A DNA stretch of 38,119 bases from a virus. Location: positions 1 to 38,119 of the IMG/VR virus record IMGVR_UViG_3300047471_000283. One strand, written 5' to 3'. Both the position numbers and the translations under genes were made by a program. Positions 11,397 to 35,336 of the stretch are shown here, in pieces. The notes under the pieces are model-generated. The model did no database searches. It worked only from the letters and a program-made list of their open reading frames with translations, and was not told where the DNA came from. Each line of letters starts with the position of its first letter. Positions within the stretch are counted from its first letter, which is position 1.

Positions 11397-12008
11397 TTAC
11401 ACCGCAGCGTCGGGAAGGTAGCTTTCGACGTTGGTGCGGCGATCGTGCTTCCGCTTCTCGCTCTTGTTGGGCGCGTCCTTCAGGTTGACGAGGACAGACT
11501 TGCCGACGAGCGGGGAGTCGGTACCGTTGAGCGGACCCTTCGGGGGGAACACGCTGTTGAGCAGCGACGCCTTGAGGCCCTTCGAGGTCTTGGGCGTGAA
11601 GCCCGTGGCCGCGAAGAGCGACGTGAGCGCCGACACCGCGAGGTTGTGCGGGAACGCGACCTTCATCGTCGCATCCTCCGCCGTGCCCTGACCGAGGAGC
11701 AGGCGGATGTTGAGCGTGTGACGCGCCCACGTACGCTTCTCCTCGTTGGGGTAGCCCGCGCGGACCTTGATCTGCACGACGGCGTTGATCTTGTTGGTGT
11801 CCTCACTAGCGCCCTCACGCCACGCGGCTTCGATGACAGCGCCTTCCATCCACTCGAAGAACTCGTCGGAGTTCTTCTTGTTCACGGACTTGACGGCGTC
11901 CGCAGGGACGACGAACGGCGCGCCCTGATCGAGGGCCGCAGCCGCAGCCTTCTGAGCGCCATCGCTGATGTCAACGAAATCGGGGGTCGGGATGTTCTGG
12001 TCAGCCAT
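11397..12008 (-). CDS. SSB-like single-stranded DNA-binding protein (putative)
   Basis: ATG 12008 overlaps the Sak4-like gene by 8 bases, with GGAG in the ribosome-binding position. The 203-aa product has a beta-rich middle (INAVVQIKVRAGY ... TWARHTLNIRLLLG) and a C-terminal segment (LVGKSVLVNLKDAPN ... TNVESYLPDAAV) like that of phage SSB/recombination-partner proteins, where a 'gk.v.v.v...n.v..ylp' pattern is common. The usual acidic tip is missing. The gene order SSB-like next to a Sak4-type ATPase is known from other phages. The call rests on pattern and context. Confidence 0.55.
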   Translation of the reverse strand: MADQNIPTPDFVDISDGAQKAAAAALDQGAPFVVPADAVKSVNKKNSDEFFEWMEGAVIEAAWREGASEDTNKINAVVQIKVRAGYPNEEKRTWARHTLNIRLLLGQGTAEDATMKVAFPHNLAVSALTSLFAATGFTPKTSKGLKASLLNSVFPPKGPLNGTDSPLVGKSVLVNLKDAPNKSEKRKHDRRTNVESYLPDAAV

Positions 12009-12831
12009 TGGAGGTCTCCTTCGGGTTCACTTCGGACTCGTACTTCACCCAGTAACTACTCGGATCGCGATCGAGGAACACCTTCGCGAGTTTGTTGACG
12101 CCGACTTCGTCGGACGTTCTGATCTTGCTGATGAACTTGCCGTCGTTCTCGGTGATGGCAACCACCACGTCGGACGGGGCGTCGTCGCCCGGCACGAGGA
12201 TGGTCTCGCGGATCAGACGGATGACGGTGTTGAACTGCGCCGGGATGTACTCGGTCATCGCACGGCCGGGGTGAGCCGGGCCGCCGACGCTATGCACGCC
12301 CTCGACGATCTTCACATCCTCGTGCATCACGAAGATGATGTGCATGTTGCGCTGGTTCTTGAAGAGCATGTCGAGGTACCCACGCGACAGCGACTCGATG
12401 GCCTGATAGTCGCCACGGTTGGGGATCGCCTGACCGCCCTTCTTCGGGTCACCGATCACGTAGTGCTTCTCGCGATCCATCGTCTGCGCGTTGGCCGCGT
12501 AGCTGATGGTGTCGAGGGCCACCTTGGTGTAGGTGTCCACGACCAGCACGCCGATCTCGGGATCGACCGCCTTCCAGTCCTGATAGCAGAACTGCATGAA
12601 GTTCACCGTTGGGTCATCGCCCTCCGGGACGACGGGGATGATCCGCCCGCGCTTGGCAAGGCCGGTGGAGCCCAAGGACTCTGAGTTCGTGTCGGCCGCA
12701 TAGTAAGCGATCTTGCCCCACGACTCGGGAACGGAGAGCGCAAGCCGCGACTTGCCGATGCCCGCCCTTCCGTAGATGATGATCCTTTCCTTGGTTGCCG
12801 GTGCAGCGTCCTTCAGGATTCTAAGTCCCAC
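12001..12831 (-). CDS. Sak4/RecA-like ATPase (AAA_24-type recombinase)
   Basis: GTG 12831 follows AAGGAGACACA; Arg/Ser-rich sequence further upstream is a shadow. In the 276-aa protein, Walker A is GRAGIGKS (21-28) and Walker B is GVLVVDTYTK (about 94-103); MHIIFVMHEDVKI is the later beta strand with a sensor-type residue. The size and layout match phage Sak4/AAA_24 ATPases, single-domain RecA-fold proteins used for single-strand annealing or recombination-dependent replication. It lies next to the SSB-like gene and is read from the promoter at 13120-13148. Confidence 0.82.
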   Translation of the reverse strand: MGLRILKDAAPATKERIIIYGRAGIGKSRLALSVPESWGKIAYYAADTNSESLGSTGLAKRGRIIPVVPEGDDPTVNFMQFCYQDWKAVDPEIGVLVVDTYTKVALDTISYAANAQTMDREKHYVIGDPKKGGQAIPNRGDYQAIESLSRGYLDMLFKNQRNMHIIFVMHEDVKIVEGVHSVGGPAHPGRAMTEYIPAQFNTVIRLIRETILVPGDDAPSDVVVAITENDGKFISKIRTSDEVGVNKLAKVFLDRDPSSYWVKYESEVNPKETSNG

Positions 12832-13084
12832 TGTGTCTCCTTTTCTTGGTACGGATGCGGTGACAGTTAGAACAGACCAGATCACACTTGGCGATCTCAC
12901 GCTTGAGTGCCTTGGCGCTACGGGTGGCACTGTTCCCGATGTTGAACAGCTTACGACCACGTACGTGATCGAAGTCCATGCACTCCGGAGGGAACTTGTG
13001 GCCGCAGTCCATGCAGGGGCCGGACTTGTGCACGTCGATCAGTTCAGTCTTCCGGAGCCGCTGCCAGTTCGGCGGTCGGCCCAT
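12821..13084 (-). CDS. Short HNH endonuclease, paralogue 1 of 3
   Basis: ATG 13084 with AAGGAG about 10 bases upstream; 87 aa. The core is PCMDCGHKFPPECMDFDHVRG followed by LVCSNCHRIRTKK: two CxxC pairs around D-F-D-H and N-C-H, an HNH/GH-like nuclease of the kind called homing or 'HNH superfamily' in phages. Near-identical cores occur at 15478-15783 and 22411-22761. It lies just downstream of the 13120-13148 promoter, wedged between the primase and Sak4-like genes, overlapping the latter by 11 bases. Confidence 0.85.
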   Translation of the reverse strand: MGRPPNWQRLRKTELIDVHKSGPCMDCGHKFPPECMDFDHVRGRKLFNIGNSATRSAKALKREIAKCDLVCSNCHRIRTKKRRHSGT

Positions 13085-13119: not shown

Positions 13120-13148
13120 ACCCTATACGATTCACGACCCGCTGTCAA
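13120..13148 (-). promoter_or_regulatory. Sigma70-like phage promoter (copy 1)
   Basis: On the minus strand: TTGACA (13148-13143), a 17-base spacer ending GAATCGTA, then TAGGGT (13125-13120), with downstream TGTAGTCCAC. An almost identical element is at 26567-26595. The -35 overlaps the stop codon of the primase gene. It would drive the HNH, Sak4-like, SSB-like and polymerase genes. Confidence 0.82.
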
Positions 13149-14167
13149 GCCTTTCCGTACGACGTTTCGATGACGTGGTCGAGTTCCTTGGCGCTCATCG
13201 CGTGCTCCGGCCCGCAGATCGTATTGGCGTAGCCGATCGCTGCCCTCGCCTGCTCTCGCTCGATGCCGCACTCCTTCAGCTTGGTGGCCGTGTGCCACGC
13301 CGTCTCGTGACGGCCCGGGGCCTCCCGGCCCTCGGTCAGGTACTTCTTCGCCTTCTGCGTCAGCTTGGTGAACACCGTCTGCCACTTCGTACCGGGCGGG
13401 ACTTCCCCGGGCTCCGGCTCCGCGAACACGGTGTCGGGCGTCCCGGTGACGAGCAGTTCAGCGAACCCAGTGAACACCTCTCGCGAGGGCTCAAGTATCC
13501 GGGCCTCGATCCCCGTCTTGATATTCCGCGTCCCCGGCATCCGCATGACACGCGGGAGGTCCGAGGTGCAGGAGTCGAGACGGCAACCGTGGATCGTGCC
13601 CAGCTTCTCGCTGATCTTCTTCAGCCAGTGTCCCATCGTCTTCCTTGCAGTCTTCCGCGTGACCAAGCCGTAGGGCTTCTCGATCGGCGTGCCGTCCATC
13701 TGGGCAGCGACACCGACGACCCATCCGTCTCCCTGCTTGTCATCGAGGATCATGTCGTTCAACCTGACCCACGCCTGCGCGCCACGTCCGCTGTGGATGA
13801 TCAGGGGTCGGCGCTTGGTGAAGTCCCGACCACCCCACTCGCCCAGCCAGAGGAGTGCCTCCTCCAGCCCCTTCAGCGGCTCGTACTCCTCCTCGACCGG
13901 GTCCATGTCGAGCAGCAGGTACGACCAGTGGGTCACGTCAGCAGCAGCGTGGCGTGCCCCCGTCGTGCTCATCGTGGGGTTCGGAGCCACATACACATTC
14001 ATGTCCTTCGCCTCGGCACTCCGGATGAACCGCTCCATCTCCACCGGGTTCCGCGCGAAGTCCCCCATCCTGCGGCCCTCGTTCCGGGCGAACATCCGCA
14101 CCACATGGAGCGGGCTCGGGTGTGGGAGCAGGGACCACAACTCAGTCACTTCGGGTCTCGGGTCCAT
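13145..14167 (-). CDS. Primase-polymerase-like protein (archaeo-eukaryotic primase superfamily)
   Basis: ATG 14167 follows GGAGACTTG; 340 aa. Motifs in order: LLLDMDP (D87, D89) as the metal-binding DxD; LIIHSGRGAQAWVRL (H125, S126) as the s-G-x-G/h motif; and CTSDLPRVMRMPGTRNIKTG (199-218), typical of the third acidic site and PGTxNxK nucleotide-binding loop in phage prim-pols. The last about 60 residues (HETAWHTATKLKECGI ...) are helical like the PriCT region. It would prime DNA synthesis for the PolA. Its end carries the -35 of the next promoter. Confidence 0.82.
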   Translation of the reverse strand: MDPRPEVTELWSLLPHPSPLHVVRMFARNEGRRMGDFARNPVEMERFIRSAEAKDMNVYVAPNPTMSTTGARHAAADVTHWSYLLLDMDPVEEEYEPLKGLEEALLWLGEWGGRDFTKRRPLIIHSGRGAQAWVRLNDMILDDKQGDGWVVGVAAQMDGTPIEKPYGLVTRKTARKTMGHWLKKISEKLGTIHGCRLDSCTSDLPRVMRMPGTRNIKTGIEARILEPSREVFTGFAELLVTGTPDTVFAEPEPGEVPPGTKWQTVFTKLTQKAKKYLTEGREAPGRHETAWHTATKLKECGIEREQARAAIGYANTICGPEHAMSAKELDHVIETSYGKA

Positions 14168-14339
14168 CAAGTCTCCAGTCGTACATGAGTCCGTTGGGGT
14201 TTGTCTTCCGGAGGATCGGTGGTTGGATGCTGTCAACGAGCGCGTTGAGTAACGCTTCCCGTTCCCTGTAGACTGCGGGCCGGAAGACCCGCAGCCACAG
14301 GAGGAACAGGTTGTGCCTGAGCCTAGCGATGGAGCGCAC
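14142..14339 (-). CDS. Small basic protein of unknown function (65 aa)
   Basis: I choose GTG 14339, just after GGGG in GGCTGGGGTCCCCG; it overlaps the end of the previous gene by 17 bases and the primase start by 26. The product is basic with a hydrophobic N-terminal helix (RLRHNLFLLWLRVFRP) that could be a membrane or DNA-contacting helix. Upstream codons in this frame are Arg/Ser-rich shadow. No family recognised. Confidence 0.55.
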   Translation of the reverse strand: MRSIARLRHNLFLLWLRVFRPAVYREREALLNALVDSIQPPILRKTNPNGLMYDWRLDGPETRSD

Positions 14340-17656: not shown

Positions 17657-18235
17657 CTAGTCCCCCCTCGGTCGGATGATCGAGATGACCTTGTCGATGA
17701 AGATGGCCCGGAGCCCAAGCTCGTCCTGCACAGCCCGGCCCCACAGGTAGTCGTGGATGTTCGCCTGCCAACCCTGCCACGGAGGGAGGAGCCGCAGGTT
17801 CGGCACCACAAACATTGGTGTGCCCACGTTACACAACTCGTACACGGGAACACGCCAGAGGATGCGGTTGTCGGCACCGTACTGCATCCGGAAGACCAGC
17901 ATGTTCTCGGGGTGGCGGCCGATCGCGTCCCTCGCTGCGGCGAGCGCATCCGGGGTGAAGATGTCGTCGTCGTCGCAGAACATCAGGTGGGTGCCCGTCG
18001 CCAACTCCATCCCCTTGTCCCGCTGGCTGGCCCCGTTGTTCGCTGTCTTCACGGGCGTCTGAGTGAGCCGGAGTTTCCCCAACCCGAGAGAGACGTTGAA
18101 GTCCGGCCAAAAGTCCCCGGGACCGTCATGAACCACGATCAGTTCGTCACCATCCAGCAACTGTGGACCGATGCTCAGGATCGTGTTCTTCAGGGTCGGC
18201 CGACCACAGGTGGGGACGATGACCGAGAGCCTCAC
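17657..18235 (-). CDS. Glycosyltransferase family 2 (GT-A fold)
   Basis: GTG 18235 overlaps the stop of the next glycosyltransferase in GTGA; ATG 18259 is an alternative without a better ribosome-binding site. In the 192-aa product, LSVIVPTCGRPTLKNTILSI is the nucleotide-sugar-binding start of GT2 enzymes and THLMFCDDDDIFTPDAL carries the DxD-like metal site (DDDD). The length is short for GT2, so only the catalytic fold is present. It lies with a second GT2 and an FAD/SDR fusion, forming a phage glycan island. Confidence 0.87.
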   Translation of the reverse strand: MRLSVIVPTCGRPTLKNTILSIGPQLLDGDELIVVHDGPGDFWPDFNVSLGLGKLRLTQTPVKTANNGASQRDKGMELATGTHLMFCDDDDIFTPDALAAARDAIGRHPENMLVFRMQYGADNRILWRVPVYELCNVGTPMFVVPNLRLLPPWQGWQANIHDYLWGRAVQDELGLRAIFIDKVISIIRPRGD

Positions 18236-18954
18236 TTCTGTTCCCACAGTGCCCCCCATTCCCGGTTGAGGTTGCGGATGACGCTGATCTCGCCGCTGCC
18301 CATCTTCGCCATCTTCTCGTAGTGAATCAGCCGCATCCGTTCCATCTCCGCACCGAGGTCATGGCGTGCGTGAGGCAGGTGGTTGGCGATGATCAGCGGG
18401 TGGTGAACGAAGCGGATGCCCATCGTGTTGAGGCGGAAGGCGAGGTCGTCGTCTTCGTAGCCGTACTCGGTGAAGTCCTCGTCGTAGCCCCGGATGTGCT
18501 GGAGCGGGGCGGTCAGCATCCCACCGAAGAGGAAGTAGGGCCGCTGGCTGCCGGACACCTCGACACCGTTCTCCTCGATGCGAGCGAGGTGGGCGGAGCC
18601 GAAGTCGTCCATGATGTGACCGTACAGGTCGTACAGGGCACCGGCCCGGGGCACGATGCCCGAGTGGCAGATGATCGTGACCATCCCCTGCGCGCGGCGG
18701 ATGCCGACGTTGAGGGGGCGGGACGGGTTGCGCCACCGGCTATCACCTCGGTTGAGACGGTGGTACTCGACGGTGATCGGCATGGCTTGGATCGCGTCGA
18801 GCAGCCCCGGCTCGTCGGTGCTGTCGTCCACCACGATGAACTGGTGGCTGACCCCGAGGTCGGGCTGGTTGAAGAAGGACGCCATCGTCTGCTTGAAGTG
18901 CTCGACCCGATTATGAACCGGGACCACGACCGTCAGGTCGTACGTTGGCTGCAT
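18232..18954 (-). CDS. Glycosyltransferase family 2 with galactosyltransferase-like C-terminal part
   Basis: ATG 18954 with GGAGTT 5 bases upstream, overlapping the FAD/SDR gene by 22 bases. 240 aa: LTVVVPVHNRVEHFKQTMAS (GT2 start), FIVVDDSTDEP, then GMLTAPLQHIRGYDEDF and YGYEDDDLAFRLNTMGIRF, a pattern of the Glyco_transf_7C / galactosyltransferase type (GxDExFxGWGxEDxDL variant). Soluble, no TM. It would transfer a hexose from a nucleotide sugar to a glycan, phage protein or modified base. Confidence 0.88.
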   Translation of the reverse strand: MQPTYDLTVVVPVHNRVEHFKQTMASFFNQPDLGVSHQFIVVDDSTDEPGLLDAIQAMPITVEYHRLNRGDSRWRNPSRPLNVGIRRAQGMVTIICHSGIVPRAGALYDLYGHIMDDFGSAHLARIEENGVEVSGSQRPYFLFGGMLTAPLQHIRGYDEDFTEYGYEDDDLAFRLNTMGIRFVHHPLIIANHLPHARHDLGAEMERMRLIHYEKMAKMGSGEISVIRNLNREWGALWEQK

Positions 18955-20714
18955 ATGAACTCCTTCAGTGCGGCCTTCACCTCGTCGAGGGTCATGACGT
19001 ACGGACCCGGGACGTTGTAGGTGACGGTGGGCTTGTCGTAGAACTTCTCACCGCCGACCTCCTCTTGCAGCCAGCCGAAGTCGAGCGGCGGGGTGACGAG
19101 GTTGACATCGGTCAGGTCGCGGATGCGGATGTCCTGAATGTCCGACCACAGGCGAGTGAGCGGGTACCACTGGAACGTAGACCACGGACTGACCTCGATC
19201 GGCCGCTTGTGGAGCAGATCGAAGAGCGCGTTCTTCTTCAGGCCCGGACCGAACAGGGCGGGCAGGCGGATGATGCGGACCTTGGGGAAGTGGTCCTTGA
19301 CCCACATCTCGAAGGCCCAACGGTTCGCACCGTAGCTCGTCTCGGGCGGGTAACCGAACCGGCGCGGAATGGCATCGACCGTGCTGATGAGGATGAACTC
19401 GTCAGTGGTCACCTTCTCCAGCATCCGCTTCAGGCGGGTCAGCATCGCGAAGTCTTCGTCCGGATGCATGTTCGCCCACCACTTGGTGCCCTTCAGGGCG
19501 GTGCATACGATCTGGCTGTAGTGACCGGGGTCGAGTGGCTTCATCGTGTTGGACAGGTCAGTCCACCGACCATCACCCATCAGAGACGAGCCGACGAACC
19601 CAGTGTAGCCGACCAGTGCTCGGCGTCCACGCCGCAGGACACCAGTCTTGCCTCGCACCATCCACTCACCTCGTTCGATCTCATCCACCGCATCATAGAA
19701 GCTATTGAACTTGGACCCGAGTACTGAAACCACTCGCGGCGATTCGGCCGAGTACTCCCACAGGATCGGACGCCCATCGTTCTCCTCGTTCTGCTCCAGC
19801 ACGACGCGCGTCGTCCAGAGCGAGCCGGTGTGCACAGCCCGACCCAGCGAGGGTACGAACCGCTTCACGTCCCGGAGCATAGCTTCCCAGTTCGAGTCCC
19901 TGTGGAGCGGGCCGTGTGGCTCCGAGTTGATCCACGTATCGTGCGGCGTGTAGGTGACGTGGGTCAGTGCCTTCTCGCCAGTGGGCGGATAGCCCATCAG
20001 CGACCAGTACGGACCGTCCATCACGGTGATGTCCACGTCGAGGTCCGGCACCTGACAGAGCGCCACCTCGCACCACTCCTTCTTGAGGCGCGTCTTCAGA
20101 CCCGGCACGACCTTGTCGAGGTTGGCGTAGGTGCAGTTGAACACGTAGCGGGCGGTGATGTAGAAGGCGGAGAGCCGCTCGATGTTCGGGATCACCCGGA
20201 CGAGGACGTTGTTCTCGTCACCCTTCACCGGGAAGCCCGTGCCCGAGAGGGTCGGGATGCCTGCGAGGGTAAGCTGGCGGGCCGTCATCTCCCGCAGCTT
20301 CCGCACGTCGAAGCTAATCTCCGGCACGCTGTACACCTGTGACACCATGTCGTGGGCGAAGAGCGTGTGCTTGATCGGCCGGATCGGGGCACCGATCTCC
20401 CTCGCGACGCGCTCGAACTCGGCCGGTGGGGTCTTGCTGTTGTGGGCGATCGCGTACCAGTGGTCCTTGTTGGGGGCCATGGCGTAGACGTGGTCGTTCA
20501 GGAAGCGCCGGTAGTGCTTCGCGGCCGACCGGGCCGTCTCGATGTAGCGAGGATAGTGCATCCCCGAGTGGACGCGGGCTTGGTTCACCCGGGTCGCACT
20601 CGACATGATGGAGGACGGCTCCACGATCACGACGCTCAGGCCCACGTTGTGGAGGGCCAGCGCGATCTTCGTACCGTAGAAGCCTCCGCCCAACACAACC
20701 GCATCGACTTTCAT
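18933..20714 (-). CDS. Bifunctional fusion: FAD-dependent oxidoreductase (DAO type) plus SDR/epimerase-like domain
   Basis: ATG 20714 overlaps the GroES-like stop (ATGA). 593 aa. Residues 4-360: FAD-binding GGGFYG (9-14) with Glu32 closing the beta-alpha-beta, then NQARVHSGMHYPR (44-56), a signature I know from oxidoreductases in surface-polysaccharide clusters. Residues 365-590: Rossmann motif G369-x-x-G372-x-x-G375, LISTVDAIP (442-450) and YGANR (461-465), the YxxxK active site with Arg for Lys, as in atypical extended SDRs. I know these as separate genes; here they are one chain. The product may oxidise and epimerise a sugar for the two neighbouring glycosyltransferases. Confidence 0.88.
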   Translation of the reverse strand: MKVDAVVLGGGFYGTKIALALHNVGLSVVIVEPSSIMSSATRVNQARVHSGMHYPRYIETARSAAKHYRRFLNDHVYAMAPNKDHWYAIAHNSKTPPAEFERVAREIGAPIRPIKHTLFAHDMVSQVYSVPEISFDVRKLREMTARQLTLAGIPTLSGTGFPVKGDENNVLVRVIPNIERLSAFYITARYVFNCTYANLDKVVPGLKTRLKKEWCEVALCQVPDLDVDITVMDGPYWSLMGYPPTGEKALTHVTYTPHDTWINSEPHGPLHRDSNWEAMLRDVKRFVPSLGRAVHTGSLWTTRVVLEQNEENDGRPILWEYSAESPRVVSVLGSKFNSFYDAVDEIERGEWMVRGKTGVLRRGRRALVGYTGFVGSSLMGDGRWTDLSNTMKPLDPGHYSQIVCTALKGTKWWANMHPDEDFAMLTRLKRMLEKVTTDEFILISTVDAIPRRFGYPPETSYGANRWAFEMWVKDHFPKVRIIRLPALFGPGLKKNALFDLLHKRPIEVSPWSTFQWYPLTRLWSDIQDIRIRDLTDVNLVTPPLDFGWLQEEVGGEKFYDKPTVTYNVPGPYVMTLDEVKAALKEFICSQRTT

Positions 20715-25656: not shown

Positions 25657-25784
25657 TTGGACTCCTTCCACGTATCACGCCATTCACCCATGAAGGTGTA
25701 GATGGAGATGACAACGCCGAAGACGATCATGGCGAGGAGCATGAACGGGGTGCAGACGATCAGGGTGAAACGGTTCCAGTTCAC
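25653..25784 (-). CDS. Small single-TM protein (43 aa)
   Basis: GTG 25784 with AAGGTGAAGAA upstream and a GTGA junction. FTLIVCTPFMLLAMIVFGVV is a strong TM segment; the end (MGEWRDTWKESK) is charged. Function unknown. Confidence 0.68.
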   Translation of the reverse strand: MNWNRFTLIVCTPFMLLAMIVFGVVISIYTFMGEWRDTWKESK

Positions 25785-26098
25785 TTCTTCACCTTCACCA
25801 GCTTGCCCATCGTGTACGCCGTACCACCGGGCACCCACTCGTAGCCGAGGGCCTTGATCAGGTGGTGCAGGGGCTCCATCACCTTCCGTACGTCACCAGT
25901 GCTGGCGAGCGGGATGAAGGGGGCCATGTCGTTGTTCTTCGGCATCCGGACCCAATAGAAGCCGTCCGCGAACTTCTGGTACTGGTCGTGGTTACGACGG
26001 ACCTCTGCCTGCAAGTTGCGGAGCTTGAACAGGAGAGCGTTGACCATGGCGGTCTGGACGAAAACAACCACGGAGAGGAGAGCGATCACGTACCACAT
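25781..26098 (-). CDS. Single-TM protein with soluble C-terminal domain (105 aa)
   Basis: ATG 26098 follows AAAGGACACACC; an ATG at 26149 in the same frame has no ribosome-binding site and lies in the tRNA-like structure. YVIALLSVVVFVQTAMVNALL is an N-terminal anchor; the remainder (YQKFADGFYWVRMPKNNDM ...) is soluble. Function unknown. Confidence 0.68.
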   Translation of the reverse strand: MWYVIALLSVVVFVQTAMVNALLFKLRNLQAEVRRNHDQYQKFADGFYWVRMPKNNDMAPFIPLASTGDVRKVMEPLHHLIKALGYEWVPGGTAYTMGKLVKVKK

Positions 26099-26118
26099 GG
26101 TGTGTCCTTTCGATTGGT

Positions 26119-26191
26119 TGGCACCCCAGTCCGGCCGCAAGCCGAACATCTCCCGGGTGCTCCCGGGTGTCCTCGCTTAGACGATGGGGTA
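26119..26191 (-). other. tRNA-like cloverleaf (73 nt, degenerate)
   Basis: The gap holds all four arms of a cloverleaf on the minus strand: acceptor TACCCCA with TGGGGTG then CCA; D-like arm TCGTCT...AGGACA (GTCT/GGAC), close to tRNA-Glu type sequence; an anticodon-like CCCGG/CCGGG stem; and a T-like TTCGG/CCGGA stem with a 7-base loop. The anticodon-like loop is 6 bases without U33, the D-loop lacks GG, and the T-loop lacks TTCRA, so it is not a normal tRNA. A decayed tRNA gene or a tRNA-mimic RNA is possible. Confidence 0.4.
26150..26169. repeat. Tandem 10-bp direct repeat
   Basis: CTCCCGGGTG occurs twice in a row (26150-26159, 26160-26169) within the tRNA-like element, forming both sides of its anticodon-like stem. 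Each copy contains CCCGGG. No other copies were noticed. Confidence 0.85.
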
Positions 26192-26269
26192 CAAGATGGC
26201 GCTGGGGCCTCATTGCCAGCTTAGTGCACTTACGCCCTTGGAGTACAGAGAGGCGGGCGACCCAGATGG

Positions 26270-26542
26270 TTACAGCGGATCGAACTGATCGGGCTCCTTC
26301 TTCTCGCGGATCAGTGCGTCACCGATCGAGTGAGCAATGCCGACACCGAGGAGGACACCGAAGGCACCGACCAGTGAGGTGATCAGACCCCAGAGGGTGA
26401 CGAGGATGTACTCGCCCGGGTTGGGGAGCGGCTTCGGATCGAGGCCCGAGTGGGCGACGGTCAGCAGTCCGACCCAGTGGAACCCGTAGACGAACGGGGC
26501 CATGACCGCGAGCCCAAGGGCGATGCGTGCGACGTGCTTCAC
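26270..26542 (-). CDS. Small membrane protein (90 aa) just after a promoter
   Basis: GTG 26542 with AGGAGGTTCACAAC upstream, about 25 bases after the promoter -10. Two hydrophobic segments: ARIALGLAVMAPFVYGFHW and TLWGLITSLVGAFGVLLG, a polar loop between, and a charged tail. First gene read from promoter copy 2. Function unknown. Confidence 0.74.
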   Translation of the reverse strand: MKHVARIALGLAVMAPFVYGFHWVGLLTVAHSGLDPKPLPNPGEYILVTLWGLITSLVGAFGVLLGVGIAHSIGDALIREKKEPDQFDPL

Positions 26543-35278: not shown

Positions 35279-35336
35279 TGTGGGTTTCGCCCTATCTGGG
35301 GCTCGTCAGCGTGAGCGGTTGACTCACGGACCCACA
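35279..35336 (-). promoter_or_regulatory. Leader stem-loop upstream of first early gene
   Basis: Outer arms TGTGGGT / ACCCACA (35336-35330 with 35285-35279, 7 bp) enclose an inner CGTGAG / CTCACG hairpin (35328-35323, 35315-35310). The structure ends about 7 bases before the AGGAG of the first early gene. It could control translation or mRNA stability. An ATAGGG box lies within its loop. Confidence 0.5.

What the first reader, a model, noticed from the sequence alone, without database searches (positions are those of the whole stretch)
26119..26191. 73-nt tRNA-like cloverleaf with encoded CCA end
All four stems of a cloverleaf and a terminal CCA fit in one short gap on the minus strand, with a D-arm close to tRNA-Glu. 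Yet U33, the D-loop GG and the T-loop consensus are missing. Candidates: a decayed tRNA, a mimic acting on tRNA enzymes, or a decoy for a host anticodon nuclease, which would suit the phage RNA ligase.
Basis: partly seen in the sequence, partly recalled or inferred. Interest (0 to 1): 0.6.

Follow-up and report, generated by a model that had tools for sequence, protein, structure and literature searches.

The report
Phage non-decoding tRNA-like RNA
A soil phage carries a small RNA gene folded like a transfer RNA but unable to read codons; relatives in other phages keep the fold while changing the letters, so it is probably a working tRNA look-alike rather than a dead tRNA gene.

Summary
The cloverleaf is real: window 26119-26191 (-) folds as a complete cloverleaf with an encoded CCA, and a strict descriptor finds 0.003 such hits per shuffled window. 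It is not a neutrally decaying tRNA. At the same place a related phage (G001) has a homolog that ARAGORN calls tRNA-Glu(TTC). A third copy lies in an unrelated 182-kb tRNA-rich phage (G014) that also encodes a normal tRNA-Glu. A more distant relative (G013) has a probable fourth at another locus. Across the four, 14 of 23 pairs change on both sides and 98% of cells stay paired. The anticodon loop varies in length (6, 7, 8, 6 nt), no copy has the standard T-loop, and the window copy lacks U33 and the D-loop GG. The T-arm instead runs on as a 7-8 bp hairpin. The tRNA-Glu-type D-helix marks (U11-A24, U13-G22, A46, no base 47) persist. Best reading: a tRNA-Glu-derived, structure-conserved, non-decoding tRNA mimic acting in trans on tRNA-binding enzymes. 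Structural conservation is shown; the target is inferred. A decoy for a tRNA-attacking defence is possible, but an anticodon-specific one is unlikely because the anticodon loop is not conserved.

The parts
26119..26191 (-). tRNA-like RNA: complete cloverleaf with encoded CCA
   Evidence: Fold; descriptor; independent covariance model R1, built without it, 39.6 bits, E 1.8e-8; covariation
26185..26191 (-). acceptor stem 5' strand UACCCCA
   Evidence: Pairs with 26122-26128; 5 of 7 acceptor pairs change on both sides among the four homologs
26169..26182 (-). D-arm GUCU-AAGCGA-GGAC, 4 bp and a 6-nt loop without G18G19; carries U11-A24 and U13-G22
   Evidence: Most conserved part of the family; Glu determinants as listed in PMC9976931
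26152..26167 (-). anticodon-type arm CCCGG-GAGCAC-CCGGG; 6-nt loop, no U33
   Evidence: Stem covaries in 4 of 5 pairs; loop length 6/7/8/6 in the four copies
26148..26151 (-). variable region AGAU (A46, no base 47)
   Evidence: AGAC/AGAU in all four copies
26129..26147 (-). T-arm replaced by an 8-bp hairpin with triloop UGC; no T-loop motif
   Evidence: loop-closing extension pairs covary among homologs
26122..26128 (-). acceptor stem 3' strand UGGGGUG
26119..26121 (-). encoded CCA end
   Evidence: also CCA in G001 (L002:5504-5506) and G014 (L065:2030-2032); CCU in G013
26192..26234 (-). conserved 5' leader block (GTGCACTAAGC[T/A]GGCAATGAGGCCCC[A/T]GCGCCATCT), possible small hairpin or regulatory site
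   Evidence: 82% identical to G001 over 68 nt including the start of the element; the two core differences (26218 and 26203) face each other as T-A/A-T in a GCNGG..CCNGC dyad
26105..26110 (-). Shine-Dalgarno AAAGGA of the next gene, 8 nt after CCA
   Evidence: UCGAAAGGA is also shared by G001
25781..26098 (-). downstream gene: small protein with an N-terminal membrane segment, no Pfam family; not conserved at this place in G001

Best explanation
The element is a gene for a non-decoding tRNA-like RNA that arose from a tRNA-Glu gene and is kept by selection on its cloverleaf. Shown: all four stems are maintained by compensatory change in four phage homologs; the D-helix and short variable region of tRNA-Glu are kept; the anticodon loop and the D/T-loop contacts of a working tRNA are not kept; and the same RNA sits in different gene neighbourhoods, including next to tRNA genes in an unrelated phage. 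Inferred: it is cut from a longer transcript by host RNase P and 3' trimming, as its acceptor/T helix and (G)CCA end suggest. It then acts in trans as a substrate mimic that occupies a host enzyme recognising the acceptor stem/CCA and/or the Glu-type D-helix (for example glutamyl-tRNA synthetase, or a tRNA-attacking defence enzyme), without being used on the ribosome.
For: The fold and its rarity. A syntenic homolog in G001 that ARAGORN calls tRNA-Glu(TTC). A homolog in G014 with a pairwise alignment z of 15.6 to G001; window z 6.3 to G001, 6.4 to G014 and 8.3 to G013, but only 1.2 to G014's normal tRNA-Glu. Model R1, built without the window, finds the window at E 1.8e-8 with the next window hit at 13 bits. 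Pair counts: 97.8% paired, 14/23 pairs with two-sided change, 0/500 shuffles as good, slid controls 43-60% paired. Neutral decay rejected. G014 also has a normal tRNA-Glu(TTC) and about 28 tRNAs, so it does not need this RNA for decoding. 93 of 102 tRNAs called in a comparison set of phage contigs have the standard T-loop while the two ARAGORN-called homologs do not. Glu D-helix determinants: U11-A24, U13-G22:A46, no base 47 (PMC9976931).
Against: There are only four copies and no RNA data. The fourth (G013) is weaker: R1 18.9 bits, no CCA, and its unconstrained fold prefers another structure by 2 kcal/mol. R1 also scores ordinary tRNAs at 14-39.5 bits, so the model score alone shows tRNA likeness, not membership of a special family. 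G001 still has U33 and a UUC anticodon and could decode. The trans mode of action and the target are not shown.
Confidence: 0.66

Rival explanations
1. A dead tRNA-Glu gene decaying neutrally.
For: tRNA-Glu-like D-arm and 5' half; the window copy lacks U33, D-loop GG, T-loop and discriminator; a better-preserved tRNA-Glu call stands at the same place in G001.
Against: No broken pair despite 12 of 23 changed pairs. The G001 and G014 homologs also lack the T-loop consensus and are about 70% alike across unrelated phages. The CCA is kept.
Confidence: 0.08
2. A cis-acting processing signal: a tRNA-like structure in the mRNA leader that lets RNase P and 3' nucleases cut the transcript just before the Shine-Dalgarno of the next gene.
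For: In the window and G001 the CCA ends 8 and 5-6 nt before a shared AAAGGA ribosome-binding site. The upstream leader block is conserved.
Against: In G014 no gene follows on that strand for about 700 nt. In G013 the next gene starts 65 nt later and is a different gene. The downstream genes in the window and G001 are unrelated by tblastn.
Confidence: 0.12
3. An aberrant but working tRNA, tolerating a missing elbow as some mitochondrial tRNAs do.
For: G001 has U33 and UUC. Two homologs have U54 and A58 and a G19-like base. Relatives carry other tRNAs with short D-loops.
Against: Anticodon loops of 6, 8 and 6 nt in three copies and no U33 in the window. G014 already has a normal tRNA-Glu(TTC). 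Rfam's tRNA model scores neither the window nor the G001 copy.
Confidence: 0.1
4. A decoy for a host anticodon nuclease.
For: Phage tRNAs are reported to defeat tRNA-targeting defences (PMC10264068, PMC11555353). An RNA ligase with an RNA_ligase domain lies in the same genome.
Against: The anticodon loop is the least conserved part in length and sequence. The ligase is also present in relatives without the element. No host or defence is known.
Confidence: 0.04

Closest known systems
Bacterial tRNA-Glu (UUC)
   Same: Cloverleaf, D-helix U11-A24 and U13-G22, A46, no base 47, G before CCA, encoded CCA.
   Different: 6-nt anticodon loop without U33 or UUC, no D-loop GG, no T-loop; T-arm is an 8-bp hairpin with a triloop.
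Bacillus cereus pseudo-tRNA tRNA-Other (PMC3399842)
   Same: A tRNA-like structure that does not act in translation; its authors suggest recruitment to another role within a longer RNA.
   Different: A chromosomal gene beside a genomic island; no sequence relation was tested. The window element is in a phage and belongs to a family with covarying stems.
Phage tRNAs that evade tRNA-targeting defences (PMC10264068, PMC11555353)
   Same: Phage-encoded tRNA-shaped RNAs, proposed to counter host tRNA damage.
   Different: Those are working tRNAs (with altered anticodon loops in PMC10264068); this one lacks a decoding anticodon and the elbow.
Plant-virus tRNA-like structures (Tymovirus type, Rfam RF00233)
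   Same: Viral RNA that imitates a tRNA and ends in CCA.
   Different: Those are pseudoknotted 3' ends of RNA genomes (own knowledge); this is an internal gene of a DNA phage with a true cloverleaf. RF00233 matches G001 only at 11.6 bits.

Membership tests
Functional elongator tRNA (tRNA-Glu) | Four-arm cloverleaf with CCA | tested here: met
Functional elongator tRNA (tRNA-Glu) | 7-nt anticodon loop with U33 and UUC/CUC | tested here: not met
   Loop GAGCAC, 6 nt; 7, 8 and 6 nt in homologs
Functional elongator tRNA (tRNA-Glu) | T-loop UUCRA and D-loop G18G19 forming the elbow | tested here: not met
   Absent in the window; 93 of 102 comparison phage tRNAs have TTCRA; elbow definition from PMC4810234
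Functional elongator tRNA (tRNA-Glu) | Recognised by the tRNA model RF00005 or ARAGORN | tested here: not met
Functional elongator tRNA (tRNA-Glu) | GluRS D-helix determinants U11-A24, U13-G22:A46, no base 47 | tested here: met
   Sequence against PMC9976931
Functional elongator tRNA (tRNA-Glu) | Charged and used on the ribosome | not testable with these tools
   Needs infected cells
tRNA pseudogene (neutral decay) | Stems drift apart without compensation | tested here: not met
   0 of 23 pairs broken against G001; neutral expectation 12.7, minimum 3 in 200,000 simulations
Plant-virus tRNA-like structure | Pseudoknotted acceptor arm at the 3' end of an RNA genome | tested here: not met
   Internal gene of a DNA virus; plain cloverleaf; no Rfam match to this family in the window
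Defence-evading phage tRNA | Working tRNA replacing a host tRNA attacked at the anticodon | tested here: not met
   No usable anticodon in three of four copies
Defence-evading phage tRNA | Protects the phage from a tRNA-targeting defence | not testable with these tools
   Host unknown
Pseudo-tRNA recruited as regulatory RNA | tRNA-like element within a longer functional RNA | tested here: inconclusive
   Conserved leader block shared only with G001

The most novel reading that the evidence does not exclude
A distinct family of phage RNA decoys: tRNA-Glu-derived cloverleaves that have dropped anticodon and elbow but keep the acceptor/T helix, CCA and Glu-type D-helix, and that absorb host enzymes attacking tRNA ends (such as CCA-cleaving or CCA-modifying defence effectors) or titrate glutamyl-tRNA synthetase. 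CRISPR effector Cas12a3 cleaves tRNA CCA tails even when the tRNA loops are removed (PMC12851939), so such a decoy would be chemically sensible.
Probability: 0.2. Interest if true: 0.8.

Novelty: new variant of a known kind. Interest (0 to 1): 0.55.

Why it matters
tRNA finders either miss these genes or give them doubtful anticodons (Glu in G001, Ser in G014). If they are working mimics, some 'extra' or 'odd' phage tRNA genes are not for decoding at all, which bears on why phages carry tRNA genes. It is testable: the RNA either binds or inhibits a tRNA enzyme, or it does not.

Tried and rejected
No relatives by BLAST in INPHARED phages for the region, the element or its homologs, nor in plasmids for the G014 homolog. 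The downstream gene has no relatives by the scan. The leader pattern in bacterial genomes hits only two Mucilaginibacter MAG contigs in what looks like coding DNA with no tRNA-like sequence; judged chance. L064/L067/L068 share the 18-nt D-arm pattern but do not fold as a cloverleaf; L066 shares only the D-arm and acceptor; both set aside. Terminator/promoter scan of the locus found nothing useful. R1 run on ordinary tRNAs to judge its specificity: 14-39.5 bits, so R1 was not used as sole evidence. tRNA attachment-site idea (attP in a tRNA gene) set aside: likeness to tRNA-Glu is in the 5' half, not the 3' half expected of an attachment site; no dedicated integrase search was run. Assembly or chance origin set aside because G001 and G014 come from other samples.

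Full report
What is there. Window 26119-26191 (-) holds a 73-nt stretch that folds into a cloverleaf with a 7-bp acceptor stem, 4-bp D-stem with 6-nt loop, 5-6-bp anticodon-type stem, a 4-nt variable region, an 8-bp T-side hairpin with a triloop, and CCA. The minimum free energy is -36.8 kcal/mol, z -2.8. A strict descriptor finds this place alone in the window and 1 hit in 300 dinucleotide-shuffled windows. ARAGORN and Rfam do not call it, even with lax thresholds. It lies between a 90-aa ORF (26270-26542) and a small gene with an N-terminal membrane-like segment (25781-26098). CCA ends 8 nt before that gene's Shine-Dalgarno.

Where it comes from. The window is a 38,119-base IMG/VR virus record with DNA polymerase, AAA ATPase and an RNA ligase. 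INPHARED has no close relative; its nearest polymerases there are 22-24% identical over about 70% of the protein, mostly in phages of Actinobacteria. IMG/VR has 13 contigs with the polymerase at 51-100%. Only one close relative, G001 (IMGVR_UViG_3300046678_000133), covers this locus.

Homolog 1. At the syntenic place G001 has GCTCCTGTCGTCTAGGCTAGGACACTTCGGTTTCCCCGAAGAGACGTGGGTGTGACACCCACCGGGAGCGCCA. ARAGORN calls it tRNA-Glu(TTC), but Rfam's tRNA model does not score it. The blastn match is 82% over 68 nt and covers 43 nt of leader plus the first 25 nt. The rest of the body differs, yet every stem is paired in both.

Homolog 2. A pattern for the shared D-arm found GACCCTGTCGTCTAGGCTAGGACACCCCCAATACTCAGGGGGAGACGAAGGTGCAACACCTTCCGGGGTCGCCA in G014, a 182-kb contig with about 28 tRNA genes. 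It is about 70% identical to the G001 copy (alignment z 15.6). ARAGORN calls it tRNA-Ser(ACT) from an 8-nt loop. G014 also has a normal tRNA-Glu(TTC).

Homolog 3 (probable). A covariance model R1 made from G001 and G014 only finds the window at 39.6 bits, E 1.8e-8, next best 13.2 bits. It also gives 18.9 bits in G013 (L015:6627-6701), a distant relative (polymerase 51%), at a different locus between homologs of window genes 13145-14236 and 12001-12960. The direct alignment of window and G013 copies has z 8.3. The G013 copy ends in CCU and its unconstrained fold prefers another structure by 2 kcal/mol, so it is the weakest member.

Structure under selection. On the four-sequence alignment, 97.8% of cells form standard pairs and 14 of 23 pairs have changes on both sides; 0 of 500 shuffles match, and sliding the partners drops pairing to 43-60%. 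The alignment was fitted to the R1 structure and so leans towards it; the margin is large. Between window and G001, 12 of 23 pairs differ, 11 on both sides, none broken; neutral drift gives 12.7 broken on average and never below 3 in 200,000 trials. The pairs were read in the register that pairs best, so that figure is somewhat favourable. Decay is excluded as the main story; replacement of the body by a related cassette is not, but it would also need intact relatives.

Why it is not a decoding tRNA. Anticodon loops are 6, 7, 8 and 6 nt with no common sequence; only G001 has U33 and UUC in a 7-nt loop. No copy has UUCRA; two extra pairs can form inside the T-loop in all four and vary compensatorily, so the loop that builds the tRNA elbow (PMC4810234) is replaced by helix. 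As a baseline, 93 of 102 tRNAs called in a comparison set of phage contigs have the consensus. What is kept is the D-helix with U11-A24 (all four), U13-G22 (three of four), A46 and no base 47, which PMC9976931 lists as tRNA-Glu determinants beside the anticodon, and CCA (three of four). In G001 and G014 the acceptor and T helices add to 14 bp; in the window 6+8 or 7+8.

How it may work. The copies share no neighbour gene, which favours a trans role. RNase P maturation and CCA exposure are inferred. The preserved parts are those read by enzymes of the acceptor/CCA end and by glutamyl-tRNA synthetase; the parts not kept are those read by the ribosome. A decoy or titrator of such an enzyme is the most economical reading. 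A Nature 2026 paper shows a defence nuclease, Cas12a3, that cleaves CCA tails with little need for the loops (PMC12851939); this is an example of a possible target class, not evidence for it.

Limits. R1 scores ordinary tRNAs at 14-39.5 bits, so membership rests on sequence similarity and shared oddities, not on the score. No host, no RNA data.

Verdict. Observation confirmed. Not a dead tRNA. A small, rare, structure-conserved phage tRNA mimic of tRNA-Glu origin; target unknown.

Noticed in passing
window 35279-35336 (-): Type III hammerhead ribozyme, 49.1 bits against a gathering score of 48.5, with core CUGACGAG and GAAAC intact.
   Followed up: partly
L044:6917-6991 (+) and L050:5911-5985 (-): Two tRNA-His-like (GUG) genes missed by ARAGORN, with T-loop TGCGACT, beside normal phage tRNA genes.
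   Followed up: partly
L093:19265-19339, L096:12191-12266, L077:14000-14071: tRNA-His genes in three other phages also have non-standard T-loops; Rhodococcus phage Weasels2 (L077) also encodes a tRNA-His guanylyltransferase. Phage tRNA-His may be unusual as a class.
   Followed up: no
window 26192-26234 (-): Leader block nearly identical to G001; its two core differences are a facing T-A to A-T exchange in a GCNGG..CCNGC dyad, suggesting a conserved hairpin or operator.
   Followed up: partly
window 18232-20714 (-): Two genes, a glycosyltransferase-like and an oxidoreductase-like protein by eye, have no counterpart in any of the relatives compared; possible inserted cassette.
   Followed up: no
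L082:6818-6894 (G014): ARAGORN calls a tRNA with anticodon CUA ('Pyl'), a possible amber suppressor, in the tRNA-rich 182-kb phage.
   Followed up: no
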